This document shows, piece after piece, positions 2,123-60,300 of a stretch of DNA of 64,000 bases (position 1 is the stretch's first letter; every line of letters begins with the position of its first letter). The position numbers and the translations under genes are program-made. The notes beneath the pieces are model-generated. The model saw only the letters and a list, made by a program, of their open reading frames with translations, was not told where the DNA came from and made no database searches. The stretch spans positions 24,204,981-24,268,980 of the forward strand of contig NC_049985.1 in the NCBI RefSeq assembly GCF_000003815.2, given 5' to 3'. Source of the stretch: Branchiostoma floridae (lineage: Eukaryota; Chordata; Leptocardii; Amphioxiformes; Branchiostomatidae).

Positions 2123-5100
2123 TCACTTCCACTTGGGAGACTTGGTCGGACTTGCCGAGTACGACTCTCTCGCCTTTCTCTTCTTGTAGCTCTCTCCCTC
2201 GCTCTCTCTATCCAGAAGCCCCCTGTACTGATACCTTCCTATGTCAGAGTCTGTACTATCCCTATCTCCACTGCTTGAGCCCTCTCCAAAGCATTCAAAC
2301 ATGGTGGGATGCATGGGTTTCTTGATTTCAGGTACTCGAGATTGTTCTTGAGTCAGCTTACCTCTTGAGAAGGTATGGTCATCTTGGACAGTACTGAAAC
2401 TACTTGAAGAATCCCTGAAGGCCCAAGGATGCGAGTTGGCATTGGCCTTTGTGTGCCTTACAGCATGCTCTGCATCCCAACCTCTATTCCTGGCCACTTT
2501 GTCTTTTGTGTACCTTTCGTCCCCTTCTTCAAACCTTCTGTCAGAGTCTTCAACACCGTTTCTTGTACTACCACAAGCACTATTGCCTTGCCTTGACAAA
2601 CTGGACTGAGATGCATTTCTTCTTGCACTCTTGACATCCAGGTTCTCAGAAATATTTTCACTTCTGCCGACGTTACGAAAGTCTGTGCTTTCAAAAGCCG
2701 GAGCTGAATTTGACCGAGGCATCTTCGGTTTCGATTCAAGATCTGCGTCAGTCTTCTGCCTAGAAGTTTCTTGCGGCACGGGAACATTGAGGTGCTTTGA
2801 TTTTACGCGAGCATCACGTGAAGAGTGCAGCGGAACGGACGGCTCTACAACCGCCTCTCTTCTCTCCCCTACTCTCCTCTCGGCTTGTTTCATCATCAAA
2901 TAAACGTCCTTCATGTTTGGGGTCAAGGTTATGTCAAGGTCAAGCAGGGACTGGTTGGCTGTTGTGGAGGCGACCTCCCTGTCTTCCTCATCCAATCCCT
3001 CCGGATTACCAGTCTGCCATTGGGAGGTCCTCCCATCTCTCACAGTGCTATCCCGAACATCCAAACTGGTAGCGGCATGTGGTTTACTACTAGGGCCAGG
3101 CAGTATGCTAGCTTCCCTACCCTTCTCAACCAAGCTGCTGTAGTTCTTTGGCATCTGTTCAGAAGGAAGACTGTGAGATCTGTTTGCAAGATGTCCAGAT
3201 TTCTCTCTAGCGTCTAGGGACATGTCATACAAATCCAGGTCCGTTTTCTTTCCATCGCTCTCACTTCTGTTCTGTCTCCAACTGTTAGAAGCAGAAGTAG
3301 AAGCTTTGTCTGTCCAGCTACCATTATTTGAGGAGGTCGAAGCGTCCCTAACTTCTTGAGAGGTGTACCTTCTGTGTGTCAGTTCTTTCTCGTTTGCTTC
3401 TCTTGAAGGAAACAGCGACTTCCGCACTTTGTCTCCATCATTTCCCAGGTTCAACTTGCGTCTTGCCTTCCCACTGCTTGTGACAGACCCTTCTGACTGT
3501 CCGGTAGGCGATGAAAATCTTGCCGACCTGTCGTTGCTTACGTAGTTTCCTCCATTTTGATTCACCGCAGAGTTGTTCAAAGATCTGTTGGAGTGATTGT
3601 AACTATGGCCTTCTTCTCCTCTCCTGTTATAAGTGTGTGTATCCGTTCCGTACTGAGAAAGGCCTTCAGACTTTTGCTTAATGGAAAGGTGGCTCAAGTG
3701 GGTTGCTGGGGTCAGTGGGCTTGGTTGTTCTAAGATAAAGCTATCCCCGCCGTCCGGCTGGTTTCCGCTGGCTTTGGGTTGTTCAGATTCAGCCCCTGGC
3801 CAATTCTGATCCGTACGAAGCCAGCTGGGCACCAGCTCATTACTGCCCCCTGGTGGATTCCTCATAAATTGCAGGGTTTGGGAGATGGGGCTGAGCTTGG
3901 GGTCAGGGAGGCAGGTTTTTTCGCTGGAGGAGACAGAGACGTGGTGTTCCTTGGAGTGGTCATGCTTCTCCTGGTTCCATTTTCTTTCTGTTGGACGTTT
4001 TTCTTCACCATCCAACTCGGGAGTTTTGGTCTTTGATCTCTCTCTGGATATTCTGAAAAGACAATTGTAGTAAGTTGTACAGTAATATTACAGATAAATT
4101 ACATGCATAAAAAGAAGAATAACACTAAACGTGTGCTACTAGATGACAAGTGGAGCAAGTTCCAAGTTGATGACAATTTGAAATTGTGAAATTGTTGGAT
4201 CAGAAAATTACCTGCACCAGACAAATTTTACCTGCACCTCTCTGAATTTAGGAAGCATGGATCATACTAAATCAAAATTGACTCTCTAATTTCAACATTA
4301 ACTTAGTTCGAATCCCTCCCACATGGTTTTACTAAAAGCTTTAATGTATCGGAGTGGTGCCCATCACTGTTACTAGGCCTTGGGCCACATAAGTGATGTA
4401 AGCCTGACCACCAGTACAGTATGGGGCTAGGCTAGTCCACATACTCTTTCCCAACAGTGCTGAAGCAGAGAAATTTGTCTGTACCATTTTTCAAGTCTTA
4501 TGGTATGACCCGGCTGTTGTATGAAGCCCCAGTCTTCCAAATTCAAGGCAAATACCCCTAGGTCATTGCACCAGTACTTTTATTTCAAATTCTTACCTTT
4601 GCTCATTCTGTAAGTTGTGGTGTTTCTTGCAGTTCTCCAGCTGAGTTTCCAACTCCTCTGTGTACTTGTCACTCCTTTCCAGAGCTCTCTGTAACTGTGC
4701 ATTTTCCTTTTCGTACTGAGCAACCTTGGCTTCCAGTGTTGCAACGGTGTACCTGCCATACCTGGACAAGACAGATCAGAAAACACATTATTTTCTAGAT
4801 TTAATGTATGCCATGCCAAATTTGATACATATACCCTTCAAGTTGTTACCTGATTATTGCATTGTATTGCTTGTACAGATATGAGTCACATGTGATAGAA
4901 TTTTGCATATTTGTACAGCAATATAGGTACACCGGTATACCAAAGTACCACCGCACAAAGAACCACAGTTCCTACACTGCCGATGCATGATTACAGAACA
5001 AAGCACTTTCACATCAACTTTTGCAGGGACCACAGTTGCTACACAGTCTGTGGTTTTTAATGTTTCGGTCTTATGCTTGCAGGAAAAAGTACTAAAAAAT

Positions 5101-8100
5101 TTGATTCAATTTGATCGATATTTAGAACTTCACAGTCAACACAGCATTATTTTCTCCTCAAATGGCAGATTTATAATCACCTAAATTAGTAATAGAATTG
5201 CTTCATACACTGCAAGTACATGTATGTAGCATACAACAATGTTGCCAACAGGGAAACAACAATTTCTATGTCAAAGATCATGTTTCCCACCTCATATGAT
5301 TTCCTCCCCAAAAAGCAAATAATTCTATGAGATAGCAAAACTCACTTTTGTGGGGTTCTCTTGTTCAATTCCAACCGTAGCTGGTCATTCATTCTGCTCA
5401 GGTCTGAGTTCTTCTCTCGTAGAATGGAGTTTTCCTGAAACATCATTACAATTTTGTCTTAAAAAACATAAAATGTCTTCCAGACCTGTACTAAGTCTTA
5501 TTCTAGCTAAGTCTATGTCTATGAATGTTGTAACTCTTGGTGCATTCTACTAGTATATGAATATGTCACATGCATATGCCAGGCCAACTGAAATAAAAAT
5601 GAATCTGAATTCTGTGTCCTAAACTACACAAATAAATGTGTAGTAAACCAGTAATCCTAATTTCAATCTGATCTACAGCAAGGAGCTTTTATCAGTAGGA
5701 GAGAGTACGGATTAGTTTCCATTGTTCGTATGTTCGTAGCGGGCGACAAAATTTTATTAACACCCACGTGTCAAAAACCCGCATCTGCATACATTTCACC
5801 CACGCAAGCTTTTGTTTTCCCTTTGTTTTGTGGTCATTCATGGTGGGGCGGCCTGGGGATACAAACATTGTGTGTAGCGATCTGATTTTTGCGATTTTGT
5901 CGACGATGTTGAACAGAAGAGTAACTTCGGAATACATACAGCGGCGGCAATATTCTCTCTGACTGAGGGTGAAATTTCAAAGCCATACGGCGACCGGACA
6001 GCGCCGCCGCTCGGGTACGGGCTAAGCCTAAAGGCAAAATTGTCTGAGGCAAAGTCTACGAAAAAAACTGGTAATATTCCTACAATTAATGATGACTGTG
6101 AAAAACCTGACTCAATGATCACAGGAACCAAGTTTTTTTTAAGTATGCAACAGATATATTTCATAAATCGATACAAATACAAAGTTCAAAATTATGCCTG
6201 GAGAACTCAAGACATTATATACGAAAACCCGATCGTAACGAAAACCATGAAAACTATGCTCTCCCGCCTTACCTTCACCTTATTCCAGGCCCGATGTATC
6301 CTCTAAAAACACGGGTGGTTCGACAAAAATGAGCAAGGTTCGACCAACAGTGAACACGCCATTTTACCGAGCACATCATCAACAGTTACGAAAAAATATC
6401 AGCTAAATGAAGAAAAACGTCATATTTTTTTAGTAGCCATCTGAAAATACATGTGAAAATTCATAATTCTATCGCAAGAAAACAGACCTCGATCCGCGAA
6501 AATAGGCCTAAACTGGCCCATGTTTGTTGTACGGCGAAGAGAAACATATCAAACTGTCCGCCATTGTGCGCTCTACCGCAAGATGACGTAGTCACATGCC
6601 TGCCGAGTTTTCCAAATAAGGGAATCGTCGGAAACCTGACCCACTTCGCCTCTTGCCGATCGGGCTTCGGGCTGGCTCGAGGGCTATGACGTAATGGCGT
6701 GGCTCATTAGCATAGAAACCGCGCCAACCGGCGCTACGAACATCAGATCAGACGGGCGCCGCGCAGGGCAGTAAACAAAGCCGGCGCTGCGGGATTTAAG
6801 GGGCCAAACAAAGCCGCACAGCGGGCGGGTAACTTCATACTCTCTCCTCCTGATAAAAGCTCCTTGTCTACAGTAATCAAATGTAAAAGAAACACTTGTG
6901 GCTCATTCTCATTGAAATGTGCCACCAAATGCTGTTACCAGGCAATACCCCTTCTTTCTTCATTTTCCCACTACACCTATAATGTTTCACAAAGGATGGA
7001 CGAAAACATTTCGTATTGGTTGATGGCTTGGAAGAAATTATAGTCCCGGGTGGGACTCCATCCTCTAAAAAATGTCTGTCACCCGAGAAGACATATAAGG
7101 AACTCAAATTGAATAAGTAGCCAAATATGTAACAACTTAAACAAGGCAGAAGAGTCGAGAGAAGACAGAAGAAAAACTTTCCCTGTAACTTTCACTTCAC
7201 GGTAAAGAGGTTTCTGCAAAAAGTGCAAACATAAAACATAAAACGAACAAGACAATAAAATCAGGTTGTGCAGTATACCCTCAGCTTTTCAATCCATTTG
7301 TTCTTTCCCTACCTCTTTCAGTTTTGCCATGTCCCTCACTACAGCCTCGTATGTCGATGTAGCGTCCTGCAGTTTGGACGTAAGCTGCAAGAGTTTGTCC
7401 ACGTCAGAGCCCTTCCCTTTCTGGGTCTTTCCACCGGATGTGCTGGGTTGGTTTGGCACCTGCTGCTTCAACTCTTCATTCTTCCTACTGAGATCTTCAA
7501 CAAGGGACTGGAGTCTTTCTATTTCCCTCTGCAAAAAAAAAAAAGCAAAAAAAATTAGTCTTGGAAACAAGCACCAAGTAAAAGCCCAATGCCATCCAGT
7601 TAAAAAATGCCAGATTTGATACATGGTTAAAAGCCACTGTAAAGGACTATTATAGCAGGCCCCTCCCCAGAGCGTTACTGAACGGCGCAGCGCCGCTCCC
7701 AAAAACTCTCCCGCCACTCCCCCGATTTGTAAATCTAGTGTTTTCTCTTTGTATTTTCGGGGATAACTAGCAAAACCACCCGACTCTGCTCAAATTTGAC
7801 CAAGAAATCGGCAAGCCTTCTCGGGAGATTCACAATAAATCCTTTGTTTTCATTGAAGCTGGCGTGGGGTAGGGTGGCATCTAGCGTGAAAAATCACAGT
7901 CCTTTGTTTATGTCTTCTTGTTATGCTTGTAAACAATAGATGTCGGTGACTTTAGCATACGTCAACCTAATTAAAAACCTGTTTTTCAAGACGAAATCAA
8001 AGGAAAACCGATAGAAAAATAAAGAGCAGACCTGTCAGCACATGGTCAGCGCATTTTTAAGAGCTGAGGACTCCTAAACTGTTACTTGCAGTGATCTCTT

Positions 8101-12066: not shown

Positions 12067-15000
12067 ATGGGGATTGTAGAAAGGATCAAGAAAGAATGGT
12101 TCCTGCTAGGGATTGTATTTGTGATCTCTATGGCAAAAGTGGAGCCGAGTTTTGGCATAAAAGGAGGTGAGTTGAAGTAGAGGTTTTACACGTTGGTAGT
12201 GACACGTTGTCAGGTGGGAGGGGGGCGGTTTAATTTTTCGATATAATTATAAACAACTATGCGTGTTTTGAAATTGTCAATTCGTTTTTGAACTATTTCC
12301 TCTCTTTTTTTTTTCAGGGCCGTTGAAGCCAGAATATACTGTGAAATACTTCGCTGTCTCCTTCATTTTCTTTAACAGTGGCCTGTCCCTCAAGACAGAG
12401 GTGGGTTAACTTAGTTAGATTATGCAGCGTAAAACAGTTGTCCTTGGCATACTTGTAGATGCTCAGACAGACAGACGTCGACATACAAGTCCCTTGAATT
12501 TGAAACAGTTTTGAGCTCTATTAACTGCATTGTACATGATTTCACTTCTTTGTACTTCTTTGTAAATATGATTCAAATTAAGTCTTAGATGCATTCATTG
12601 AAATGGAAAGTTTGTTTGCAAACTGAGATACACTTTGATATAATTTGCATACTCCATGTTAAGTTTAAACTAAAATCATGTAATGGAAAGATATGTGGTA
12701 TGGAAATATATAGTTTGATGTAATCTTCAGCAACTGCTATGCAGAAAGAAAACAGATAAATTCACTGTATCCACTTCAAGGCACTTGGCTCTTTTTGTCT
12801 TTCAACATGGCCGCTAGTAAACTGGTTCACTGGTGCTTCACTGTTTAAAATTTAAAGAGCAACCTCAAAAGGAACGTTCTCAAAGACAGAGAAAAAAATC
12901 CAAACAACTGGTCCACTTAAATGTTTTACAGTCTGTACTGTGTACCTGTACCCACACCTATTTTAAGCTAATTCTAGTGTTTACTGGAGCTTCATGATCA
13001 CTGTATAAATTTCCTACTAACATTACAATGGGTGCTGAAATGAAGTTCTGTCTCTGCCCCCTCAGGACTTGACCAGTGCACTGTTCCAGGTGAAGCTGCA
13101 TGGATTTATCCAGACCTTCACACTTGTGTTCATCCCCTGTCTCATCAGGGTACTCATTAAGGGTCTACAGTACTCACCTATCAACCCATGGCTACTCAAA
13201 GGGTAGGTGTTCATCCCCTGTCTCATCAGGGTACTCATTAAGGGTCTATAGTACTCACCTATCAACCCATGGCTACTCAAAGGGTAGGTGTTCATCCCCT
13301 GTCTCATCAGGGTACTCATTAAGGGTCTACAGTACTCACCTATCAACCCATGGCTACTCAAAGGGTAGGTGTTCATCCCCTGTCTCATCAGGGTACTCAT
13401 TAAGGGTCTACAGTACTCACCTATCAACCCATGGCTACTCAAAGGGTAGGTGTTCATCCCCTGTCTCATCAGGGTACTCATTAAGGGTCTACAGTACTCA
13501 CCTATCAACCCATGGCTACTCAAAGGGTAGGTGTTCATCCCCTGTCTCATCAGTACTCATTAAGGGTCTACAGTACTCACCTATCAACCCATGGTTACTC
13601 AAAGGGTAGGTGTTCATCCCCTGTCTGATCAGGGTACTCATTAAGGGTCTACAGTACTCACCTATCAACCCATGGCTACTCAAAGGGTAGGTGTTCATCC
13701 CCTGTCTCAACAGTACTCATTAAGGGTCTACAGTTCTCACCTATCAACCCATGGCTACTCAAAGGGTAGGTGTTCATCCCCTGTCTCATCAGGGTACTCA
13801 TTAAGGGTCTACAGTACTCACCTATCAACCCATGGCTACTCAAAGGGTAGGTGTTCGTCCCCTGTCTCATCAGGGTACTCATTAAGGGTCTACAGTACTC
13901 ACCTATCAACCCATGGCTACTCAAAGGGTAGGTGTTCATCCCCTGTCTCATCAGGGTACTCATTAAGGGTCTACAGTACTCACCATTTGTTCTTTTCACC
14001 AAACTGAGCTGTATTTTCATCTTATGATGGTCTTTTGGTCTAGAGGTTCATCTTACCATAATTCCAACACTAGGGAGAACTTTGAACAAGTTGCAATCTT
14101 TGAATACAATGCAGTGTTTTAAAACGTTTTATGCTCAAGGAATATTGACTGTAAAAGTTCCAAAGTTAAGCTACTATGTAGTAAGAGAAAAGGCATTACC
14201 CTAACCTCTGTGAGAGTTTGTTGAATATGTACCAAGTATGACTCAACACTGAGATTGGGAGATCAGCTTACTTGGTAATTTTTGTAACAAGCTAATTGAA
14301 GGAACTTCTCTTTGCAGTGAGTTAAGTTGCTAAATACATTCCATGTCTAAGTAGAGGGAATTACTAAGTCTAGCAGGAATTTAGATGCCTGACTTAAAAG
14401 TTAACTATAAGTCAGGAGGGCATACAAACACTGTGTCTGTTTGTCAATTCTCAGACCAAGGAGCTTATATTGAGATATAAGATCCAAATAAGGAAATCGG
14501 CGGAAACTGCCGGCATGCCGATCTCAGCCTCGGGTGATCTTCGGCCAGGCTCGGACGCGTGACGTCACAGTCGGGCTCTTCTGATTGGCGCTCGGGTAAA
14601 AATGGCGCCATGGCCTGAACCCAACATCCGATCAAAGCGGCACCTCCGGAGGGCGTAAACAAAAGGCCGCCACGGGAGTTAGCGGGTCTATACAATACCG
14701 CGCAGCGGGGTATTAAGCCCGTCCAACCTCCTTCTCAATATAAGCTCCTTGCTCAGACCAATATATTGTAAGTATGATGATTGTAAATCTAAAATTTTGC
14801 AGACTGATGGTAGTAGGCTGCATGCCCCCTCCTGTCTCTTCTGCAGTCATCCTCACCAAGGCAGTGGGAGGCAATGAGGTAAGAATTGTTAACTTCTGAA
14901 ACATCAGTCCTCAAGAATCATTGATTTGAACTCTAAAGTCTAAATCTCGTGTCTATAACTGTCAGTATTTTTCAAGTTGAAGAAACATTTGAAAATTCTT

Positions 15001-18000
15001 GGTGAATAATTGTTAAATGCCTTTTGGTTTTTGTATATTACGACATATAAAATCGTTAATGTTATACTGCTGAATGTACTCTTTCTGTATTTTGATTGAT
15101 CAATGATGATCAAACACNNNNNNNNNNNNNNNNNNNNNNNNNNNNNNNNNNNNNNNNNNNNNNNNNNNNNNNNNNNNNNNNNNNNNNNNNNNNNNNNNNN
15201 NNNNNNNNNNNNNNNNNNNNNNNNNNNNNNNNNNNNNNNNNNNNNNNNNNNNNNNNNNNNNNNNNNNNNNNNNNNNNNNNNNNNNNNNNNNNNNNNNNNN
15301 NNNNNNNNNNNNNNNNNNNNNNNNNNNNNNNNNNNNNNNNNNNNNNNNNNNNNNNNNNNNNNNNNNNNNNNNNNNNNNNNNNNNNNNNNNNNNNNNNNNN
15401 NNNNNNNNNNNNNNNNNNNNNNNNNNNNNNNNNNNNNNNNNNNNNNNNNNNNNNNNNNNNNNNNNNNNNNNNNNNNNNNNNNNNNNNNNNNNNNNNNNNN
15501 NNNNNNNNNNNNNNNNNNNNNNNNNNNNNNNNNNNNNNNNNNNNNNNNNNNNNNNNNNNNNNNNNNNNNNNNNNNNNNNNNNNNNNNNNNNNNNNNNNNN
15601 NNNNNNNNNNNNNNNNNNNNNNNNNNNNNNNNNNNNNNNNNNNNNNNNNNNNNNNNNNNNNNNNNNNNNNNNNNNNNNNNNNNNNNNNNNNNNNNNNNNN
15701 NNNNNNNNNNNNNNNNNNNNNNNNNNNNNNNNNNNNNNNNNNNNNNNNNNNNNNNNNNNNNNNNNNNNNNNNNNNNNNNNNNNNNNNNNNNNNNNNNNNN
15801 NNNNNNNNNNNNNNNNNNNNNNNNNNNNNNNNNNNNNNNNNNNNNNNNNNNNNNNNNNNNNNNNNNNNNNNNNNNNNNNNNNNNNNNNNNNNNNNNNNNN
15901 NNNNNNNNNNNNNNNNNNNNNNNNNNNNNNNNNNNNNNNNNNNNNNNNNNNNNNNNNNNNNNNNNNNNNNNNNNNNNNNNNNNNNNNNNNNNNNNNNNNN
16001 NNNNNNNNNNNNNNNNNNNNNNNNNNNNNNNNNNNNNNNNNNNNNNNNNNNNNNNNNNNNNATGATGATTCAAACACAACCGTTAAACAGCTTTACTCGC
16101 CATATAAGATTACAATGAGTCTGAATAGTTGAATATGTGTTGAAGGTACTAAGTACATGTACATGTATTTTGTTTCTGCTTACGACTTACATAAATTTAC
16201 AGGATTTGAAAATTTTATAGGCTTGCTTAATACAACACAATGGTTGTATATTTGAAATTGAATGCAAGTATCATTACTACAAAATGTACTTTCACCATGT
16301 TTGAATACTATTAAGTAATATATAATCATACTAAAAATGATGTATGCATTTCGAGAGTAATCTATATCCGTAGTAGTCTTATATCCTACTGAAAAACACT
16401 AAAAAGTTTGAGCACAAATAATTTCCCTTGTACCCATCTAGCATCCTTCCTATATACTTTGTCTCCTATGAAAAAAGAAACAGTGTTACTGTTTTCCTTC
16501 TATCTACAGGCAGCAGCTATATTCAACTCAGCATTAGGCAGTTTTCTGGTAAGTGTATTAATTTTACAGACTACTTTATGTACATGTGTATGTAAAATTA
16601 GGGGTTCCCCAAGCTGTAGCAAAGCTGTACTGCACTACTATGTACTGTACATCAATACCTAGTGAAAAACATGTCAAGCTTCGTGCTCAGTCTGAGGCTC
16701 GAGCACTTTTTACCTTTAGTTAACAGATTCTATAAAATATTGGTTAGGCCTTCTACTTGCAGAAGGGAAAAATTTTGCATTTTCTTTATCAATTTAACCC
16801 CATCTATATATATATATAATTATATAATTCATGTATAGGTATGGACAGCATGTCTCCACCTGAATTTTGGCTTTGATATACAGTGTATACCAATTCAACA
16901 TCTTAAAGTTTATATTTATTTGCCACATATGAATGGAAATCTAGTCTACTTTTGAACCAAATCATTGTCAACAGTATGAAATTTTGTTGCCGTTGCTATA
17001 TAAACCAGTTCTCGTATAATGTTCGAGGTCAAGGTTTTCCAACTTCAAATGACCGATCCTGGCCTGATTTATCTTAACTCTCATTGTCATTCTCACATTC
17101 TTAAATGCCACATCAGCATATTATTTATTGTTACACCTGTTTGAAACCTCAGCCATTTGGTCAGCATCACTTCCAGTTGGCATTACATGTACTTTGACAT
17201 TGACTTCATTTAGATCCACAACTTTGGATCCACTATCTTGACATTTCTGTTAGTTATTCTTCCAGTGGTCTTGCATCTACTGATTCATGAATACAATGTC
17301 ACATGACAGACAGGTAAACTACAGAACAATCACACTAATGACTAAAGTACAGAAGAGAAAAAATACTGATACATAACCATACTAGAGAAATGAACGAAAA
17401 TGCAAGTTCATGTTTAACTGTCCTGTCATGTGATTGATGAGACATTTGGTAGAAGAAGCATTTCCTTTCAGCATTGAACTTGGTTTTGGCTGTTTGATGG
17501 GTTTATTATTTGCTGCTCGTTGTGTTTGGTTACTGACTGTTCTGTATAACTGGAAGGTGAGTTGGTTGTACAATCATGTTCATGGTACTCCAGTGTACTC
17601 ATTCATCAAGAGAGGTTTTATCCAATCAGATGCAGTAGTGACTTTGGAGTCAGGTTACCACCACACTCGCACAAGGTGTAGGTACAGATGTTCAATCTTC
17701 ACATTTTGCAGGAGGGCTCATGTCTAACTTCCTGCCTGTTGGCTTCTCTGATTGTCTAGATTCTCGCCCAGAACGGTTTATGAATGGAGTTTCATTGCCA
17801 CTTGCACCTTCTTTAGCATCAATTAGTGGAGTATTCTCATTTACATTCTCATCTGTGTTCATTTTTGGATCATCTGCTGATACCTGTGAAGATGTATTTG
17901 GGCTTGTGCTGATGTGGGAATGTTGTTCAGGGTGATTTTGTACTTGGCTATCTGGTGAAGTAGTCAAATTCTGTTCGTGGTCGTCAGCATTAACGGGTCG

Positions 18001-21000
18001 CATTCCTATGCCATTATTTTCTGCATCTGCCTGTACCTGTTGAGGGGGGGTTTGTCCATCAGGACCGTCAATGACATTTGCACCTTGTTTAGTATCCATA
18101 AGAGATCTAGATACATTGAATTTCTCGTTTACAGAATCATTCTGTTTGTTCCCACTGTCGTCATTACTATGACTGCCCTTGTTCAGAGAACCCTTATGCA
18201 TCCTGCCTTTATGTACACTAAGCCCATGCTTGTTCTTGCATCCTTGGCCACATATTTCGCAAGTTACACCATCTTGTTCCTGTTGAGAGGGAGTTTGTCC
18301 AGTAGGACCATCAGTGCCATTTGCACCTTCCTGAGCATCTATTAGAGATGTATTTTCATTTACTTTCTCATCTTGGTCCATTGTTGGATCATCTGCTGAA
18401 ACATGTATTTCGACCTCTGAAGATGCAGCAGGGATTGTGTTGATGGTGGAATGTTGCAATTGTTCAGGGGGATTTTGTACTGGGCTATCAGGGAGAGTAG
18501 TCAGATTTTCTCCATTGTCATCAACAGTATTGATGGGCTGCATTTCTATGTCTGCCTTCTTCAGGCAACCCTTCCAGGTCTGATGTCTCTTAAGCCCTGA
18601 CTCAGTCTGGCATACTTTGCCACATATGCATGTTACCTTCTCCAGACAACCCATCTCGATCTGGTGTGTCTATAACTCTGACTCAGTCTGGCATACTGTG
18701 CCACATACTTTGCATGTTACCTTCTTCAGGCAACCCTTCCAGGTCTGATGTCTCTTAAGCCCTGGCTTAGTCTGGCATACTTTGCCACATATGCAAGTTA
18801 CCTTCTGCAGACAGCCCATCTTGGTCTGGTGTATCTTTAGTCCTGCCTCATTCTTGCATACTTTGCGACATATTTTGCATGTTACACTCACCTGTGTATT
18901 TGGCTGATGTACATTACCTCCAGAATTAGTGCTATCCCTTTTATCTTTATACTTACGTATACACTTAATAAATGAATAGATACCTCCAATAATGGTAACA
19001 AGACTAGCAGGTACACCTGGTACACCAAAGATAATACCGAGCAGCTGCGGAGTGGTAAGGGAGTTGCTGTTTGTCGACTCTGGTTGCTCTGTCTCTGAAT
19101 TTTCCCCATTTGCTTTAAGTTTAAGAGTTGTTAGTGCATCTTTGGTCACAGCAGTATTTCCAGGCAATGTAGGCAATGTTTTTGTAGGTACATGCACCGG
19201 AATGTTGTCAGTAGAGCTGTCTGCAGACCGTGGGTGCTCTCTTTTCAAGTTTTCACCGTTTGCTGTGGTAGCTATAACTTTGACTGCAGCTGTATTAGTA
19301 CCAGTTCCCTGCAGCAGGATCAGTAGTGCAGCAAGAAGAACAGTGTTGACTGTAGTCCTGACCATGGTGTTGTGATGCCTAATTAGGTCTAGTATGAAAG
19401 AGAAAAATGTCATGGTTAAAAAGATCAAGTGTAAGGAAAATGTCACTTATGATTTGTTACTGTTAGAGCAGAGTTACTACATATTATTATATTGTATTAT
19501 TATTTAAACATCATTGTCATTGTCATTATTCAAAGTTTTCAGGTGCAAATTAGGATGTTACTTTGCCTACCGTGAGTTTTCCTGATATGTGTTCAAGATG
19601 TTCTTCTCCCATTTCGTACAACATTGACAATCCTAATGGCTGATAACAAGGCATTTTAAAACTACAATGTCATGTATGTGTACATGTATCGGTACTTTCT
19701 TTGTTTCATACTCTCTTAGCCTTAATCTTTGTCAACTATATATTTGCAGGGTCAAGTGAGCCTTGTACACTTAATTTGTCCATTCTTGCAAGAATATGCA
19801 ATTCAAGACATCTCCTTAAGCAGCACCACCTAGAGCTGTGCTTTGTACATTTAGATTTCATGTAATATGTATGATTGGTCACATGACCCCAATACGAAGC
19901 ACTCTGGTCTCATGCAGGCAATCAGGCCGCCATCTTGCTTTTTGTTGTTGTTCAACCCCTGCATAATAAACTCTTATAGAACAGTCCCATAAAATATACA
20001 TGTAACTTGTAATATAGCGAAAGCCTTTTACAAATTGTAACAATTTTAAAGGCTCTCGCTTATATTGCACTACATGTTGCAGTTCATGCCCGAAGGCTGC
20101 TTGCAAGACTTAGTACATGGTATAAACATAGGAGATTACAAGTGACAAATGAATGAACAGTTATAAACATATTAGTCGCCTTGTCATTGTCAATTACGTC
20201 CATAACCAGCACAGTTTTGACTGTTACTGGTCTGGTATAACCATAAATGTTCACCTTTTCTTTGTTTACAGTCCGGAAAGAGTTAAAGAATGATGTGACG
20301 AAAGTGAAAATGAAACCAGTTTAGCTCAAATAGACTTCATGAACAGAATTATAAAGAGCTGGCTTCAACAGTTACTGGTTATGACAGAGAAGACACTCAC
20401 TGTCTTGTCTACAATAGTCAGTATTAATTCACAGGTTTGTCATACCAAGAAAATTCCCTGAGCTCTTTTTCACTAGTGTTAGTGCAACAAACAGTGGACC
20501 ACGGCTTAACGTCCTGTCTGTTCCCATGTTTTATACAATCGTCATGTAGTCTGTTCTCAATGAACAGACTATAGAAAACATGAAGATCAGTATAGCACTT
20601 ACCTGATATATTATACTGGTTCTGCCTGTCTCAATGTTTTTCCTTAGAATGCGAAGTTGAGTGCACGTCTTCAATGATTTGGGAATTCTGACTCAACACC
20701 TGTCTGTCTGTGGGTGTAGTCTGTTTATGGTTAGAAATGTTGACAGTCAGTCACGGTCACCTGAGTAAGGAATTTGAAACTAGTATGTCTTATTTATGAA
20801 GCTCTATTATGAAATACAATGTCATGTACCATGCAATAACTGCGCAAAACAGAGTCCCAGTCATTTACAAAACTAATAAATATGACTTAGTGTAATGTAA
20901 GATGTAATATACTAGAATCTATGTGAATGTAGATACCTGGCAGCCAAAGGCAGCAGTCACTTCATTGGTTCCGGGTCGGAATTAACTACTAGTATGACAG

Positions 21001-24000
21001 GGGTTCGTGGTACTGGGCATGGTAATATGCTGGATATACATGGTTGTCTCGGACCCTAACTTTTCCTCCCTATTGCTTGGGGATTGTTATAGCTAACTCA
21101 GAGCCTTATATTATGTTTTTTTGAATTTCCAGTAAAGCCTGTGGGTTGTATTATTTTTGTGTGTGGAGGAGTTGGTCGGCAAGCAAGACTGTTTTGTATT
21201 AGTCCGCGGCAATGGTGATGCGTTTTTTTTTATGCCTCACTCGGATGACCAATTAGCAGTGTTTTTGGTCAGGTGTGGCCATATGTACTCATCTTTGTTT
21301 ACAGTGACTGGAAAGAAGCGAGGAAAAGTGAAAGTGAAAATGATTGCTAAAATAACATTAGGCCACACCAATTTAATTTCTTGGTTCACGGATTTTTTCA
21401 TACAAAATATGGAGCGAGAGGGCAAAATAAAAATAAAAGTAAAAATTGTAAAATGGTTGGTGTAAAGGTAAGGGCTAATCCAAAACATAAAGAATAAAAA
21501 GTTTTCAGCTTGAAAAAAGTACAAAAACACTATTATCATATAGCCAGATGGAGTTGGCCAATCAGAGGCCCCCATTTCCCATGGGTTATCAGGCCGTAAC
21601 CTGAAAAGTGGGCGGTTATTAGAATAACCGCCCACTTTTTGGACCGCACCATTATAGAGGGGACAGGACGCTAATACTAGTGTTACGTATTTATCGATTA
21701 TATCTATTAAACAGCGTATTGTACTTTATTTCGAACAATTTATGTTAAACTACAACACAATTAATAGATATAAATGATATTTAAACTGAAAAAGATTAAA
21801 ACAGATTTACAACACCCCCGCCAAAAGTGGTTTGTTCCATTACGTCACCGCAGATCCGCATATCGGACGATTTTATTTTTGCTGGACGCCATCTTTTTTT
21901 TGCATTCGAACCGCAAGTTTGTGAGCTTTTTGTTGGTATTTTCGTCGNNNNNNNNNNNNNNNNNNNNNNNNNNNNNNNNNNNNNNNNNNNNNNNNNNNNN
22001 NNNNNNNNNNNNNNNNNNNNNNNNNNNNNNNNNNNNNNNNNNNNNNNTTTTTAACTTGACTGCCCCTCAGCCTCGATAACCACCTCATAAACCACCTCGT
22101 TCGCTACGCTCACTCGGTGGTTTATTCGGTGGTTATCGCACCTGACCAGGGATTATCTCACCATATACACCTCGGGGCGGGGCATTAACCCTTAATTACT
22201 GTACAGTAACAGCACCTGTTCATTGAAAATTACAAAAGTAGTGTCAGTTTTTATGTTTGTCCCATTCTTCATGAATGAAAAATATAACAGTACTGCAATG
22301 ATAACACCCACATATTAAGGAGCTTATAACATAAAGGCCGATTTGCTACACCAGAAAGTTGGTGAATAGTTTCATTAATGTTGAAAATTTGCTGAGTGGT
22401 AATTTTTATTTTCATTTTTTTTTTCAAAAAATTGGAGCGAGCGAATCCGTGAACCAAGAAATTAAATTGGTGTGGCCTTACATTGTGGATTTGACATATT
22501 TGATACCTGACCATTTCTGTTCCTTCCCATCCAGGGTATATTTGTCACTCCAGTCCTGCTACTGTTGTTTGTAAGTATGACTTAAGTTTATTCATTTGTG
22601 TGCTGTGTACAAGGTTGAAAGAAAAATACCATTAATTTTGTTGATTAATAGGTAAAATTTAATTTCTCTTCCATGTCACCATTGCCTCTTTTCAGATGCC
22701 AGTCCTAGTATTAAAACAAAAAAAAGTCTCCCTCTCTTTACATCTAAAACTGATATCACTGCATTAGTCTCAGAGTCTGTGGAATGAACGTTCGACAAAA
22801 AAATGCATTAAACTGCAAAACATTTCTGGTTTTCAGGACCATGAAAAATTATGTATGGGGAAATGGGGAAAAGCAATTATTAGCCAGATTGACTGTGAAA
22901 TGAAGCAAGTATATGTTGTTAATTGTTTTACAACACCTTCAGGCCCTAATCAGATCCAGTAGATACACAATGATCCAAAGCCTCATCTACTGACTAATGA
23001 AGTATAGGAAGTAACAACAATAACCAGCTGTGGTCATGCACAATTACATTCCTGTAAAGTAAACAATGTTGAAGTGGAACTGATTGTGATGAATAGCATA
23101 ATAGTTATTGTATGAAATTCATATCTAATTGTTTTACAGCCCTATAGTTTCTAATCCATCATTTTGGTTCAGTGTTGAAACTGGACGAGAGATACGTTTA
23201 GCTTCATCAACTACCATGATCATACATGTAATTGCAGTTTAATAGGTGTAATTATGTTTGATATTAGTGCTCATCATACTACTGTTACAGTAGTAAACAC
23301 AGAGTTTGCTTAGTCTCAGTTGCAGCCCCTGCCAGACATCTTTTTTGCAACAACTACATTTTGTACATTTTCAATTTTTCTGATAGCAACAGGGCTTCTG
23401 AGAGGAAACTAGTCAATAAACAAGTTGTCCAATGACATTTAATCTCCACAGCAGAGGTTTGGCCCAGCTGATTAGTGATAAGTTTTATGCATTTTCTTTC
23501 CATGTCAAGGGAACAATAAAGAATGCCTGACAAAACAAATTAAAAAGAAAAACTCTGCTTGAAGAGTAATCATTCTAGTTTATTTGCAAAATCTTGCCCA
23601 ATGCGACATAAAACATAGTACAATATTTGGAAAATAAATTAGTGTAGAGAGCAATTGTGACATTGTGGAGAACTGCAATCTAAGCTTTGGGTTTGAATTC
23701 TAGATCTACAATGTAATATGGAAGCAGTAGAAGACAAAGAGTCCCACTCAGAGAGTAGTATCCACTGATTCTGGTGCCGTCTTCAGTAACAGCAAGTCTT
23801 GATTTTTTCACAGCTTGGTTCCCCTTCAGCTGTTCCGTACAGCACCATATTTGGGCAGCTGACCATGACCGTGGTGGCGCCTCTCATTGTCGGACAAGTC
23901 GTCAGGAGATTCGTGAAAGACTGGTTAGAGAGGAGCAAGCCTCCATTTGGGACCATAAGCAGGTAAAACCTACTGTAGCCTGTAGTGATTAAATCATAAT

Positions 24001-27000
24001 TTGAATATTGTTTACCTGGATGTCTAATCTTGATATATGTTAATTGAATAATCAACTTTGGTCAGGTAAACATTTTTTTCTTAAAATAGTGGGACCAATA
24101 AATGAGATTGGTATGGGCTTATATGCTATGTCAAAAACTAATTATTATGCGCATAATTTCTTCCCAGCTGCACATTGTTGCTGATCATCTACACAACGTT
24201 CTGTGACACCTTCAGTAGTTCAGACATTGAACTGGACCACTTCAGTCTAGTCTCTATTGTTTGTGTAGGTAAGTGCAACAGGTCACATACTATTCTTATG
24301 TCTGCTTTTTTATAACTTTTTGGGCAATTAGAGCAACGTCATTGACTTAGTCATTCCAAAACAAAAATTGAAGCAGATTTGAAATAAAACTGGCAACAGT
24401 GTAATTCCGGACGAAGACTCTAATTTCGGAAAACCTTACTTATTTCAAAATAGATTAACCAGATGAATTAATATTTGTAGGCATGATATATCAAAGGATA
24501 GTGAACATGTAAGTTGCAATTAGATGTCTCCATGAATTCTGGGGATTCTACCAGAATTCTTGCTGAGTCCGAATTCCGCAGACTTTTCTTTGTGGAGACA
24601 TCTAATTGCAACATACATAATTTTATTCACTATCCTTTGATATATCATGCCTACAAATATCAATTCAGCTGTTTAATCTATTTAGAAATTATTAACAAAT
24701 ACTAATAGGTTTTCGTCTAGAATTAAACTGTTGCTGTTGTTGAGTGTTATAGGTAAATTGATGATAAAGTGTCAGATAGTAGTTTCAGGTGCTCATTTTA
24801 TTGTTTTTTCCTCAGTGTTGTTAATACAGGTGTGCTTGCTACTTCTACTTTTCTTCGTGACAAGAAGGTGGGTTCATCTTTTGTTCTTTTCTTTGACAAT
24901 TGATAAACAATAATAAATGTCTTATAAGGAAACTACAAGAAAGCAATGATACGTACATGTGCATTCATTTAGTAGTCTATTTACATGTAGTACAACTGTT
25001 ACAGTTGATTTGGCAACAACACTCTGTAAATAAAGATTATGATGATAGCAGATTTTATGGAAATTCAATAAGTACATATTATTAAATTGTAGCGATGACT
25101 GTGCTTTTTATATGACAGACTGTATATTGTTCTATCCACAGTCCATCTTTTGGCTTCACCCCGTCAGACGTCGTCAGCCTTATGTTCTGTGCAACACACA
25201 AGTCACTAACTCTAGGCAAGTAGTCATTCAATTTGACAAATATTATATAATAATTACACTGAGTGAGTGACTGCAGTAATGACATCATGTACAAATATTA
25301 CATCTGTAATATATACACTATAATGCAAAGGCCCACCAAAATTGGAGGGATATTTTATACAATGCATACAATGTACAAACAGGTGGTCTACTTGTCACTA
25401 CAAGTGGACCACCTCTACACATTAAGGACCACTGGGCCAGTTTCTCAGTGGTCTCTTATGGTAATTTTTAGACACTGTAATGTCACTGACCGCTGTGACA
25501 TTCCTTGCACTGTTTCAACTCTGTCTTAGTATTTAGACTCTACATCTTACACATCCTATACATCTTCTTCATTTGGTAAGACGTTTCCTGCTCCGAGGGC
25601 TTTCCTGAGTCGAACCCAGAACAACGGTCGCGCTTGTTTGTCTTCGGGCCACACGAGGTACGTTTTCCTGGACATGAGCTGGCGCAGGCGGTTGTACCGC
25701 TGCACGACGTGCACCGGTATGTCCTCCAACAAAACCAGAACCAGCACATCCTTTCCTTCCTCGAACAGGCGGTGTTGGGCGATCTTGAACTCCAGCGTGC
25801 ACCAGCCGCTGCGTACGAACCTCTGCGTGAGAAGGCACAGCGTCTTCCTGCTATCCTGGATCGCTTCCACGATGTTTGTCGTGATGTCACGTCCGGCCAG
25901 GAAGTCGCGATCACCGATACACAGTCTGTAGTGCGGCGCTACTTCCTCTAGGTGCGGAATCAGTTCCTGTTGGACCCACCGGATGTCTTCGTTATTGTAC
26001 GACACAAACACGTCGTACTCGTAACGGTTCCTGTACGGAATGGCTTGGTATCCACGCAGCTTTCCCCTCGCGTACTGATACAGATATCGTATGTACGCAT
26101 GATATTTTGTCAGCATGTACGTCAAGGTGGTATACAGAAAGACGAAAGTGGACATGACTATACATGCATAGTATCCAAGGTAGGACTTACAATCTGGGTT
26201 GTAGTCAATAAGGGGAAGGTCTTTCAGGTCTGGGGGAGAGAAACACTTGTAACTATACTCCAAACCAGTATAGGAATCAGACATGATCCTCACTGACGTA
26301 TTATTTCTTGCCCATTCTACAAAATCTAGGAGTTGGCATGTGCAGGAAAACTGATTTCTCGACAGGTCTAATTTGTATAATCGATTCCAGTATATCAGTG
26401 TTTGTGGCCCTATGGATGTGATCAGGTTTTGTCGCATGTTAAGCTGACGCAGAGAATTTACGTTTTGAAACAGTTTTGGTGATATTGCAGTGATGCGATT
26501 GTAACTGAGATCCAGGACTCTTAGGCTGTGTGCATCACGAAACATGCTTGGGTGCAAAGATACCAGGTAGTTCCCTGCTAAGTTCAGAGTGTCCAGTTTC
26601 TTTAAATGCCAGAATGCCTCTTTTTTGATGTCTAGGAACCCATTTTTAGACAGATCTAGCTCCTGTAATAGTGTTAGATTCCAGAAGAGATCAGCCCTAT
26701 AATGATAAGCATATGTTATTCCAGAATCAATCGAATTTGTTACTCTTAAAACTTGCAGATCTGGGATATTTATGCTTCTGCCCCTATCATTGAGAATGTT
26801 GCCACTTCCATCGCGTAAATCAAGAACCCATAGTGAATCCAGGCCTGCGGATAAGATGGCATCAAGTGAAAAGAAAGCATCATTTTCCTTTGTCAAAAAG
26901 ACTTCCAGATTTTGAATATACTTGAAAATACCTTTTTTTGTTGGTTCATAATTAGCCTTGTTAAAGCCTATGTCCAGCTGTATCAAATTACTAAGACCTT

Positions 27001-30000
27001 CAAAATGGTCACTTTCAAAAGAGCGAATTCCACAATTTTGCAATGCCAGAATTTGCAAGAGAGTTAGGTTTCTGAAATGTCCTGGTTGTAGTTGAAAGTT
27101 CAGGTTATTACCCAGATTGAGTACCTCAAGACTTCCTGAAATAGGAATAAATACATTTGGGTCTAATGCTGTTAACTTGTTCCCACTCAGGTGCAGTTCT
27201 TTTAGATTTTCTAAGCCACTAAAAGCACCAATCTCAATGCTAGACATCCAACATTGAGACATCCTGAGTACCTGCAAATTCGTAAGTCTCACAAACAGAT
27301 TTCTGGGCAAATTTTCGATGATGTTAAGATCTAGATTCAATGTCTCGATTGTACGTGGGAGACAATCAAAGAAACCACTGCGATAAATGTACAGTCTCAT
27401 ATAGACCAAGCGCAGAAACTTGACTGTGCCAAAAGTCAACTCACAGGTATAGTCCAAAAACTCCGACATTCCTCTGACTTTAATGTCCGTAAAATCCAGT
27501 TGCTGTACATTCCGTAAAGTGGTCAGTGCGCCTTTCTGTATGTGTGACAAACTGTCTACAGTTGCGGAAAGAGACAGCGCACGCAGAGAACTGTTTGTAA
27601 GTACCTTGAAGTCATTTGCTGAAATGTTTCCTACGAAGTTGCCAAGAATGCTTATCGTTTGTATGTTCGACATACCTCTGAATGTGTCAAGATTGGCTGA
27701 TGTGATGGCGTTTGTTGCAAGGTTGACATCCTGCAGGTTATAGAGCATTCTTAGTGCTTCCGGAATCGCTGTCAGTCTTACTTCGGATAGATCCAGCTTC
27801 GTTAGGGACCTGAGAGGAAGGAAAGCGTCTGGGTGGATGTGAACAAGCGGATTATCGCTAAGGTTCAGTTCCTCCAGTTGTTGTAGGTTTGCAAACGCCT
27901 CTTTTTCCATGGAGGTTATGGCATTGTTGGAAAGTTGGAGTTGCAGGAGGTTGTCCAGCCCGTGGAACGAGTTGTTCGCTAGTTTGGGAATCCTGTTGTG
28001 GCTTAATTCCACCGCCGTTGTTCTCGATGGCATCAGAGGAACATAGTCCAGATTCAGGAAACTACAGTCCACAAAGGTTGCGTTCAAACTCCAACACGGG
28101 AAGGCGTCGTTTCTGATTGCAGAGACTCTGTTCATCCCGGCAAAGTGGCCCAACAGGAAACAAACTAAGAGCCACGGTCTTGACATGTTGCTGGTTCTTT
28201 TCCCACTTCAGGTTGTCCAAGGAATATCTCTTGTCAAACAACAGATTGTAATCTGCTGGTTTTGCCGTCACACTGACAAAGTCCTGTACATGAATTTATA
28301 CAATCCCAAGTGTACTGTATTTGACTATGCTGCTGTCACATGAGTGGGCTCCTTGTAAAATACTTTCAGTTCCTTCAGACTGCCCAATTATGGTGCTATT
28401 ACAGACATGGCATTGTTCCAAGACTGACTCACTTCCTCATCATGTTCGGTTCATTTCCAAAATTTAACCCTTGAGGCAGCAATTTCTACTCCACGTGAAG
28501 ACAGTGTGATGCGTTTCACTTCTGCTTTTTTAATTTGCTTTGTGTTAGACTAGATGTAATCGGACCCTTCGGTTCTTCATGAAAGTGAAACTTCCCTTGA
28601 GGTGAGATGTCACCTCTGAATGAGTCACCTCCTGTTTTCTATGTATTTTTCTCACTTCTTCTGATGGTACTTGAAAGTTTCCTGATCACTTCCTACCACA
28701 TCACTCCTCGCAACAGGCTGCCACTTTTTGCTTGCTGGGACTCAATTAACATTACTTTTCAACAGTTCAAGTTGCTAACATAAGCTCACAAGTCAAATCA
28801 AATTACAATACTAATGCCCCTTCGTTGTTGCTTGGCTAGTGAATGAATTATTTAGCAATTCTTAGTTCATGAGTTTTGACTTTTCATTTATTTCAATGTA
28901 AAAACGGGTAGTACTAATTTCTATGGGTGCCTGTGTTCTATACTGAACTGAACTGAACTGTGTTCTATATGAAACTACATACAGGAAAAATGTTGTATTG
29001 TCATTCATTCTAATTGCTGAGCACCATGCATGTACCCTTCATAGTATTAAAAAAGTTGCCAATGTTAGAGTCTTTGTTTAATATGGCAATTATAAACCAC
29101 AGTTTAACAGTTGCGCATCGCAATAGGCAGTTGAACAGCTTAGCGTATGACCGCACCACTCAAAACCTAGGACTGTGACCCTCTGCTCTCTGCCCTAGTG
29201 CGCGGCTACCAAAAATTACCCTGGCAGTGCTATTTTGTTCATTTATATAAACAAGCTTCCACCAGTTTTGACGCTTGAGATCAGTAGGGCTAGCTAAAGG
29301 GGATTTTTTCACTGCTATAAAAAGTTGTTCATGCCGCCATTTTCTTTTTGGCCCGACACTCTTTTAGGGTACCCACTCACCGACTAAGATCGCGTGGTGC
29401 AATCGGCAGCGCGTTGGGCTCAGGGTCAAGAGGTCCCGAGTTTGAATCCTGCCGTGTCACCGATCTTCTGCCCTTGGGAAAGGCACTTAACACAACTTTC
29501 CCCACTTCACTCAGGTGAAAATGAGTACCTAGCTTCGGCTAGAGATGTCCCTCGGATAGTACGCTAAATGGAGGTACCATGTCTGGAGAGAACCACACCC
29601 CACGCACATTAAAGAACCCACCACACCTTTCGAAAAAAGAGTAGGGGCATGCCCCTTGCTGTGTGCAATGGAGCAAAGCCTTCCGTCTGGAGTTGGTGAT
29701 TCACTTCAAATCTCCCGGATAGAGGCCTGGCAAGCCTCCGTCTCATATCAGCCATACAGTGATTTACAGCCAGACAGGAGACGTGGCAGCAAAAAATAAC
29801 TCAGCTAAACAAGGGTATGCCGCCTCGTAAGGGGCTTTATTACCCAATGCAAGGGGCCAGTTCCTGGCCTAAGCACGTATATATTACATATTATGTCATA
29901 CCTGTGACGCGAAAACGTTCAATACGGGTGTTCCGGACTGGGCCATAACTTCCGTATCGCACAGGTTACAAAGGCGTATCACACGGGCTCCATTCGAATA

Positions 30001-57300: not shown

Positions 57301-60300
57301 CCTCCTCTTTTGGTTAACAAAGTCCTTTGTACAAAACCACAGAGTTAATACCTCAAAAGCCAACATTTCAGTGATTGTCTGTCACCTTCCTCAGAGCAAT
57401 AATGATATGTTCTACATGGCACTGCAGATAGGTGGCGCTGCTGCACTGTAAAGAAAGTGGTCCCAAATGTGACACTGAGTGAAACAGTAAGTTACCAAAT
57501 CATATCCTACCTTTCTGCCGACCCTGATCTCCCGCGACTTCTGTCGTGTGGACTGCGGCTACGACTGCGTTTTCTTACCCGGCGGAAATCACGTTCATCG
57601 TCATCTGGAACCTAAATGATTGGAAGCAACAGAGTATAAAAATCAGTGTGGTACAGTGTTTCCGCCAGAGGGGCGTCCACCCGTCCATTGACGGTCTCAT
57701 TTCGTTTTGGACGGCTTGAACGCAAACAGAGGCCGTCCTCATAAAAAAATGCGACCCACATTTTGCCGAGAAATCTGTACAAAGTCGATAAATGTAAACC
57801 GCAGTTTTGTGTTTTGTATTGAAGCAAGACGCTTGGGGACGCCGTCCACAGTCAGAAAGCCGCTTACTGTTTGTTTTGCTATTGTTATGATTATTGACAA
57901 ATGTCTGTCGGCCTCCTTTCGCATACGTTAAAACCCGTTTTTCAAGGTCTCAGTTATAAATGCGAATTTTCCCTGCCACATTTCGAAAACTTGGCGGTAG
58001 GTCGATCTCGCTATTACACTACAAACTAATAGTTGTTATTGGGAGAAATAACTTAATAAGAAAACACACTAACTTTGTCTAGATATTAAAAACTTTAGTC
58101 TCTGTTTTCATCATCAATCATCGTAAACAAAACAAAACACGATGATCAGAAACATGTGCCCACCGGGTGCTTGGCACGGGAAATCCAAGACCTCTTTCAA
58201 GTTCGTTATCGGCAACACAGCGGAAAAATAAAGTGTTCACATAAGAGGTGATGGACGTAAAAAAACATCAAGTATAACTTTAGTTCCTTTTTATATGAGT
58301 TTTGAGCCCGCAAAATCTCCGAAAACGACAGAAATTTTCGGGATAAATACGCATCAAAAATGGCGGTCGGTAGTTGTTGTGTATCCTAGCCAATCACAGC
58401 GCTAGTTTCCCGTGACGTCGCTAGCTTTCCCAGATCTCGCGAGAAGTCACCACGTGAGATTGCGGGATTTCGGCCGCCATTACGCTCACTGTCGCCGATA
58501 GACGATGTTTTTCGTCATTTCTGAACGCAAATTTCTCGATCTATGGAAGGTTTTAGATGATTTATAAGTATACTACAACATAAAAGAGAGTATATACAAA
58601 TGCTATTTCTTTTTTGAAAGCCTAAGAACCGTTTCTAGAACTTTTTAAAAGTCGTAGTACCCGTTCGGTGCGGCATACCGGTACGCGGCACAGATCATAA
58701 CACTTCGGCACTGAACTTAATCGGACGTTAGTTGTTTTGTTTTTTCTTGCGACAGTTAATCATTAACTTTAATTTTCGCGATTTTACAATTAAATTTAAT
58801 TTTCGCGGTTTTACAATTAAATTTAATGTTCGCGGTTTTGCAATTAAATTTAATTTAATTTTCGCGGTTTTCGCGCCCCAGGGTGGACGGCCTCCCAGCT
58901 GAGGTCTGGCGGAAACACTGGTGTGGTACATTGCCTTGTATTCAGAGAGTCTGGGCTCAAAGCCTGGTCAGGTCATAGTATACCAAAGACTTTAAAAAAA
59001 GGTACAGCTTAATTGCTTGGGACTCAGCACTTACAAGAAAGAGTATGGGACTAGCCCCTTACTAGAGTGGCTTGTAAAACAGACATAGGCATTGCCCATA
59101 TACACTGAAATGATAGTCATGCAGTAGTAAGAGTTAAAAAATTCTTTGCACTAGTTTTTGGTGTTGTAACAAAGTTTTCACTCTGTTCTATATAGATGGC
59201 TTTACTTTTAAGGTTGATAAATTTAATGCATGTTATATTACACTCTGAAAAGACTTGTCGCACGTAACCTTTGCACATCTGACTGTAAGTGTAAGTGTTC
59301 TTTAAAGCTATCTAAAGCAGATGCCCCTACAGTACTTGGTAGCAATGTGTTCAGTTCTATGATCATTCTAGTGAAAAACAAAAAGGTGAAGCAAACTTAC
59401 ATCTTCAGACTTTCTGTGTGTGATAATAGGCTCTGGTTTCTTCTCCTCAGGTTCAGGGGTAGGAACAGGTACAGTAACAGGTACAGGTGCAGGCTCCGGC
59501 ACGTGGACGGGCAGGTACGTCTTTGTGTTCAGCGCAACAAACAGGCTCTCCACAAAGGTGTTCGTTTCTACAAGTACAACAGAGGAAACAGAACATTAGA
59601 TATCCAAGAAACAAAATGTTTTATAAGAAAAGAGATGAAACATTGACAATGAACAAAAGAAGGAGAAAAAGAATTTACATGTACAATCATGCAAAAATAG
59701 TTAGAGTAAATCCGTTTGATATATGATTGCAGTCCGTAATTCTAGCAACTGGGGGATAGGAAGTACTATATATGACATCGACTTAAGCAGTGACATTATT
59801 CTGGGCCTGACTTAGTGTTCACATAATTGTGAAGATGAAAGCTTAGCCGTTGAATATTGCTTGAGCCAAATTCAGTTACAACTAAATAATTAACAGTATG
59901 TCATATCTACACCTGGAAATTTATGGCATTTTTAAAATCGTTCAGTTGGTAGGCCTAGTCCTCAGGGACAAACCATAAAATTTGAGGGATAATGGAATTG
60001 CTTTATAATGCCAAGGGGAAAAAATGTTGTTTTTCCTGTTTCAGTCCTGAGAAAGATACTATAGGGTCAGTAGGTAAGAATTATCTTTTCTACTTGTAGT
60101 TGTACTTTAACTGTTGAGTGTTGAACAAAGTAAACTGAAATGCAAGAAGACACTTGAATATCCAATTGCAAGTAACACAGTTGATAAGTCTTAAACTAAG
60201 GTTGTATCTTGTACCTTTCTGAAGAAAGACCTCCAGCTGATCCTTGCACAGGGCCTTGAGCTCCTCCTGAGGCTTGTCCTTCTTCACAAGTGCCACCACA

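What the first reader, a model, noticed from the sequence alone, without database searches (positions are those of the whole stretch)
13126..13983. Tandem array grown from a coding exon end, each unit with acceptor-like and donor sites
The 3' end of SLC10A7 exon 3 plus its donor is copied in 81-bp (27-codon) steps into the intron. Each unit has an acceptor-like CTCATCAG and the real donor GGGTAGGT, 54 bp apart, and this 18-codon segment has the same phase (2 to 2) as exon 3. Skipping from the exon 3 donor to a later unit's acceptor and out of its donor would insert 18 residues in frame, repeating part of a membrane segment. Simple read-through would stop at TAG. The intervals between units are only 27 bp, so splicing out each one is unlikely. 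A splice-competent minisatellite of this kind could give length-variable transporter isoforms.
Basis: partly seen in the sequence, partly recalled or inferred. Interest (0 to 1): 0.72.

Follow-up and report, generated by a model that had tools for sequence, protein, structure and literature searches.

The report
Amphioxus "mirage" repeat in SLC10A7
The end of one transporter-gene exon, with its splice site, has been copied about ten times into the next intron; this is a further case of a repeat type already described in amphioxus, and it most likely leaves the normal transcript unchanged.

Summary
The array is real: 13126-13984, ten full units of 81 bp (two are 79) plus a 53-bp partial, 97% matches. 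Unit 1 is the end of SLC10A7 exon 3 (13066-13202) with its donor; units 2-11 lie in intron 3. Each full unit carries an acceptor-like CAG and GG|GTAGGT 54 bp apart (52 in units 6 and 8). Adjacent units leave 27 nt; the next possible intron is 108 nt.

It is a "mirage", an amphioxus minisatellite that duplicates an exon/intron boundary, reported in Adh3, troponin C, globin and PGBD5 genes and reported not to disturb splicing. In the same genome I found mirages in an Adh gene, two CCT genes and two myosin genes.

Of ten mirage units scored, only this one forms a separate, phase-neutral acceptor-donor cassette. An acceptor this strong is found in about 4% of 81-mers, about 1.4% with phase, so luck suffices. 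Best reading: a young, neutral mirage; exon 3 normally joins exon 4. In-frame 18-residue isoforms are possible on paper but no RNA could be examined.

The parts
13066..13202 (+). SLC10A7 exon 3 (phase 0 to phase 2)
   Evidence: tblastn with recalled human SLC10A7, splice sites read by eye, joined translation
13126..13984 (+). 81-bp tandem array (mirage): 10 full units + 53-bp partial
   Evidence: TRF; unit table
13126..13206 (+). unit 1 = the real exon end and first four bases of intron 3
   Evidence: identical to consensus
13203..14802 (+). intron 3 of SLC10A7, 1600 bp, phase 2, holds units 2-11
13149..13202 (+). 54-bp acceptor-to-donor segment inside exon 3 (prototype of the cassette, phase 2 to 2)
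   Evidence: acceptor 6.14 bits, donor 3.61 bits by a recalled human-type matrix
13311..13364 (+). first intronic cassette reachable by a 108-nt intron (unit 3); in frame, 18 residues
13554..13605 (+). 52-bp segment of unit 6 (2-bp deletion): would shift the frame and stop
13714..13765 (+). 52-bp segment of unit 8 (same deletion)
13932..13984 (+). unit 11, truncated before the donor
14803..14878 (+). SLC10A7 exon 4; its acceptor scores -0.01 bits, second weakest of nine mapped

Best explanation
A recent amphioxus mirage minisatellite. The 3' end of SLC10A7 exon 3 with its donor was tandemly duplicated, and units spread and were kept alike by slippage or unequal exchange inside intron 3 (inferred). 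Copies survive because all lie downstream of a working donor, so they are intronic. The normal mRNA joins 13202 to 14803 (inferred from protein continuity and from what is reported for other mirages). If a later donor were used the reading frame would stop at TAG; occasional cassette inclusion is possible noise.
For: Array spans the exon/intron boundary with all extra copies on the intron side. Same architecture reported as 'mirages' in Adh3, globins, TnC and PGBD5. In this genome arrays touch all four edges of two Adh exons (at one of the four the TRF span holds a single exon base), the acceptor side of the CCT6 exon at L028:3174, the acceptor side of another CCT exon, a donor in one myosin gene and three edges in another. 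Exons 1-8 joined give an uninterrupted SBF-like transporter (Pfam SBF_like 1.6e-59). Substitutions are few (6 over ten full units and the partial), as for young or homogenised repeats.
Against: No RNA, no second haplotype and no other amphioxus species could be examined, so splicing, age and length variation are not shown. The exon-4 acceptor scores lower than each of the 11 unit acceptors, which would favour at least some use of the units.
Confidence: 0.86

Rival explanations
1. Splice-competent array: some transcripts leave from the exon 3 donor, enter a unit at least two steps on (108-nt intron or longer), leave from that unit's donor and add 18 residues (or multiples) in frame; allele length sets the isoform range.
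For: Unit acceptor 6.14 bits in 7 of 11 units, against a mean of 5.62 for nine real acceptors of the gene and -0.01 for the true partner at 14803; unit donor equals the real donor. In-frame product verified on paper for unit 3. Of ten mirage units scored only this one has a separate, phase-neutral cassette.
Against: Published mirages are reported not to disturb splicing. Acceptor-like sites of 6.69 and 6.53 bits lie inside exons 2 and 4 of the same gene. Two of eight reachable units break the frame. A 54-nt exon is short (recalled knowledge). The matrix is recalled, not trained on amphioxus.
Confidence: 0.09
2. Assembly artefact: the copy number or the array itself is wrong in this assembly.
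For: The Adh donor array in this assembly ends beside an N. Runs of N lie at 15118-16061 and 21948-22047.
Against: No N inside the array; five of the ten full units carry differences from the consensus, mostly private; the genome search reported one place.
Confidence: 0.04
3. Early intron gain: the array is on the way to creating a new exon and intron, as in the published globin model.
For: Model in PMC3087553 section 16; each full unit has AG and GT signals.
Against: No fixed derivative seen here; no comparison species available.
Confidence: 0.04

Closest known systems
Mirage minisatellites of amphioxus (Adh3; globins BflGb6, BflGb9; TnC; PGBD5)
   Same: Tandem duplication of an exon/intron boundary, copies on the intron side, splice signals repeated, units of tens of bases to about 160 bp.
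   Different: New gene (SLC10A7); the unit here carries a well-scoring acceptor as well as the donor, 54 bp apart and phase-neutral, which none of the nine other mirage units scored here has. The globin, TnC and PGBD5 arrays themselves were not fetched or scored.
Intron gain by tandem duplication of coding sequence (PMC4974935, search listing only; Cryptococcus repeat expansion, PMC2395259, passages seen)
   Same: Repeat units bearing splice signals inside a gene.
   Different: There new introns are gained with the repeats; here the copies are already inside an intron and no splicing is shown.
Human introns from tandem arrays (Zhuo et al. 2007; seen only as a reference in PMC3087553, not held; content recalled)
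   Same: Splice sites multiplied by tandem repeats, with alternative splicing.
   Different: Transcript evidence exists there (recalled), none here.

Membership tests
amphioxus mirage minisatellite | tandem repeat spans an exon/intron boundary | tested here: met
   unit 1 crosses 13202|13203
amphioxus mirage minisatellite | extra copies lie in the intron, next to the real boundary | tested here: met
   units 2-11 at 13207-13984 in intron 3
amphioxus mirage minisatellite | host is a cephalochordate | tested here: inconclusive
amphioxus mirage minisatellite | regular splicing not disturbed | not testable with these tools
   no RNA data
amphioxus mirage minisatellite | length instability between alleles or in soma | not testable with these tools
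   one place reported in one assembly; two 2-bp deletions among units
alternatively spliced exon array | acceptor and donor on each unit | tested here: met
   9 of 9 full intronic units have both; unit 11 lacks the donor
alternatively spliced exon array | length divisible by three in the units | tested here: not met
   7 of 9 full intronic units 54 bp, 2 of 9 are 52 bp
alternatively spliced exon array | transcripts that contain units | not testable with these tools
   no RNA data

The most novel reading that the evidence does not exclude
The array is a splice-competent minisatellite: non-adjacent 54-nt units are included in a fraction of SLC10A7 mRNAs, giving in-frame 18-residue insertions next to the conserved PPP region whose number depends on the allele, so a mirage acts as a length-variable cassette exon.
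Probability: 0.07. Interest if true: 0.7.

Novelty: new member of a known kind. Interest (0 to 1): 0.3.

Why it matters
The case adds SLC10A7 to the list of mirage-bearing genes, and a small panel suggests that mirages are common in this genome (6 boundary arrays in 4 of 17 CCT and myosin loci). With ten identical donors in a row and acceptors that score above the true one, it is a natural test of how the spliceosome picks the first donor, and of the published idea that mirages seed new exons.

Tried and rejected
27-nt unit-to-unit introns: rejected as too short for a chordate (recalled knowledge; smallest of the seven mapped introns of this gene is 151 bp). Selection on the units: cannot be read, since all ten donors are identical and six substitutions are too few. 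A special affinity of arrays for exon edges: in the 17-locus panel, with the HMM exon matches alone, 4 of 10 merged arrays (period 20 or more, TRF score 100 or more) lie on an exon edge against 3.1 expected from random placement (1829 of 5000 shuffles as high), and 5 of 10 against 3.4 with 15-base slack (966 of 5000). When I add the CCT6 exon, which I had looked at only because it bears an array, the figures are 5 against 3.2 (778 of 5000) and 6 against 3.5 (336 of 5000) (a rerun gave 805 and 334). So the panel does not show that mirages need a special mechanism. L033:6789-6894 was checked as a mirage and rejected: it stops short of the exon; L028:1872-1978 lies 1459 bases or more from the HMM exon matches. 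The splice-site matrix uses frequencies recalled for human genes; none was trained on amphioxus. The Adh 29-bp unit was scored but left out of the ten units. Random 10-kb loci L007-L023 (17) were used only for array density, with the window, the Adh locus L004 and two flanks (19 arrays in 244,645 bases). Globin mirages could not be checked: that search did not complete in any of 12 tries.

Full report
Observation. The sequence at 13126-13984 is an 81-bp tandem array with 10.7 copies and 97% matches. Cut at GTGTTC, it has ten full units and a 53-bp partial. Five of ten full units equal the consensus, among them unit 1, which is the real exon end. Six substitutions and two 2-bp deletions (units 6 and 8) are all the variation. 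The genome search reported one such place (it warns that repeat counts are lower bounds).

Host gene. tblastn with a recalled human SLC10A7 sequence places exons on the + strand from 12067 to 30542; junctions were read by eye. Joining the first eight exons gives 247 residues without a stop, with exon 3 = 13066-13202 and exon 4 from 14803, and Pfam SBF_like at 1.6e-59 and SBF at 1.4e-17. Exon 3 alone (45 residues) matched no Pfam family. An exon expected between 24268 and 25142 was not found.

Splice signals. With a human-type matrix of recalled frequencies, the exon 3 donor scores 3.61 bits (eight real donors: mean 5.05, lowest 1.5). The unit acceptor scores 6.14 in 7 of 11 units and 3.81, 3.93, 4.77 and 6.05 in the other four (nine real acceptors: mean 5.62, lowest -0.79). 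The acceptor of exon 4 scores -0.01, below each unit acceptor. In the window 1.26% of 3654 AG sites reach 6.14, the array's own included, and 256 of 6209 81-mers (both strands, array left out on the + strand) hold such a site; with a one in three chance for phase that is about 1.4%. All copies inherit the site by duplication, so it counts once. Exons 2 and 4 of the same gene hold inner AG sites of 6.69 and 6.53 bits, so such sites are ordinary in this gene's coding sequence.

What splicing could do. Donor to next acceptor is 27 nt, then 108 nt for the unit after; the smallest of the seven mapped introns is 151 bp. From exon 3, units 3-10 are reachable: six of these eight are 54 bp and in frame, two are 52 bp. 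A unit-3 insert gives ...[27 protein letters not shown]..., and a unit-6 insert stops soon. Read-through of exon 3 runs into TAG right after LLKG. None of this shows that any unit is used.

What it is. PMC3087553 (passages, and section 16 whole; [quoted passage not shown] unit lengths 10-72 bp for Adh3 and 150-160 bp for globins; [quoted passage not shown] alleles differ in copy number and somatic instability was seen at Adh3; and a mirage unit might be recruited as an exon. PMC3902484 (passages) adds PGBD5 and says that Adh and TnC mirages do not generate aberrant mRNAs. A search for SLC10A7 with amphioxus found no paper. Of the papers listed by the searches on amphioxus or Branchiostoma with minisatellites or tandem repeats, I opened PMC3087553, PMC3902484, PMC2206037 (passages; tandem repeats in the huntingtin gene, no mention of mirages) and PMC2812944 (outline only), and PMC2395259 in passages; the rest were seen as listings.

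Same kind elsewhere in this genome. The Adh-like gene found with a recalled human ADH5 has arrays at all four edges of two exons: L004 4027-4274 (a weak one, 75% matches), 4370-4458 (its span holds one exon base), 4463-4867 and 5053-5376. For a panel not chosen for repeats I took 7 loci with CCT exons and 10 with myosin-head exons from the coordinate tables, by exon density: 44 of 60 and 49 of 142 matches, 93 in 89.2 kb. One more exon, CCT6, was found because of its array and identified by its match to T-complex protein 1 subunit zeta at 2.7e-11. Boundary arrays: CCT6 L028 2821-3230 (68 bp x 6.0, acceptor side); CCT L029 2999-3417 (acceptor side, reaching about six exon bases); myosin L032 1926-2039 (58 bp x 2.0, donor); myosin L040 320-486 (90 bp x 1.9, donor), 1031-2129 (50 bp x 22, acceptor of the exon that codes GESGAGK), and 2834-2952 (40 bp x 2.9; the TRF span starts after the exon, but by eye its units copy the exon's last bases and donor). 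That is 6 arrays in 4 of 17 loci. Against random placement the excess at edges is not significant, above all without the CCT6 exon, so mirages may simply be what frequent tandem duplication leaves where exons are dense.

How this one differs. Of ten mirage units scored (SLC10A7, three of the four Adh, CCT6, CCT L029, three of L040, L032), two have an acceptor and a donor of 3 bits or more at least 24 nt apart: SLC10A7 (54 nt, phase-neutral, 27-nt gap) and the L040 P-loop array (50 nt, not phase-neutral, no gap, because one AG|GT serves as both). So SLC10A7 is the only separate phase-neutral cassette in this small set. I read that as a coincidence of about one in seventy per unit, met in a genome with many mirages, and as a good place to test whether a mirage can ever become an exon.

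Verdict. Confirmed observation, known kind, new locus. Shown: boundary duplication and its geometry. Inferred: slippage or unequal exchange, youth, neutrality, and use of the first donor. Untested: any cassette splicing, allele variation, age.

Noticed in passing
25559-28207, - strand: Open frame of 883 residues with leucine-rich repeats and a TIR domain (Toll-like receptor kind), nested on the opposite strand in the SLC10A7 intron between the exons at 25142 and 30397.
   Followed up: partly
25205-25235: The SLC10A7 exon from 25142 seems to end with a GC donor (TAG|GCAAGT), inferred from protein continuity with the exon at 30397.
   Followed up: no
L040 1031-2129: A myosin gene carries 22 copies of a 50-bp unit with the acceptor and start of the exon coding the ATP-binding GESGAGK loop; two more boundary arrays lie in the same gene.
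   Followed up: partly
L028 2821-3230: CCT6 exon with about five extra copies of its acceptor and first 55 or so coding bases in the upstream intron.
   Followed up: partly
58762-58871 and L028 1872-1978: A very similar 27-bp AT-rich tandem unit occurs in the window and in the CCT6 locus, so it may be a dispersed tandem family.
   Followed up: no
L004 5053-5400: The Adh donor array ends beside an N, and residues 117-374 of the ADH5 query had no match at the cut-off in the genome search: the assembly may break at the mirage.
   Followed up: no
17695-19446, - strand: Two long open frames with weak C2H2 zinc-finger matches below the Pfam cut-off, with an 81-bp repeat at 18555-18873.
   Followed up: no
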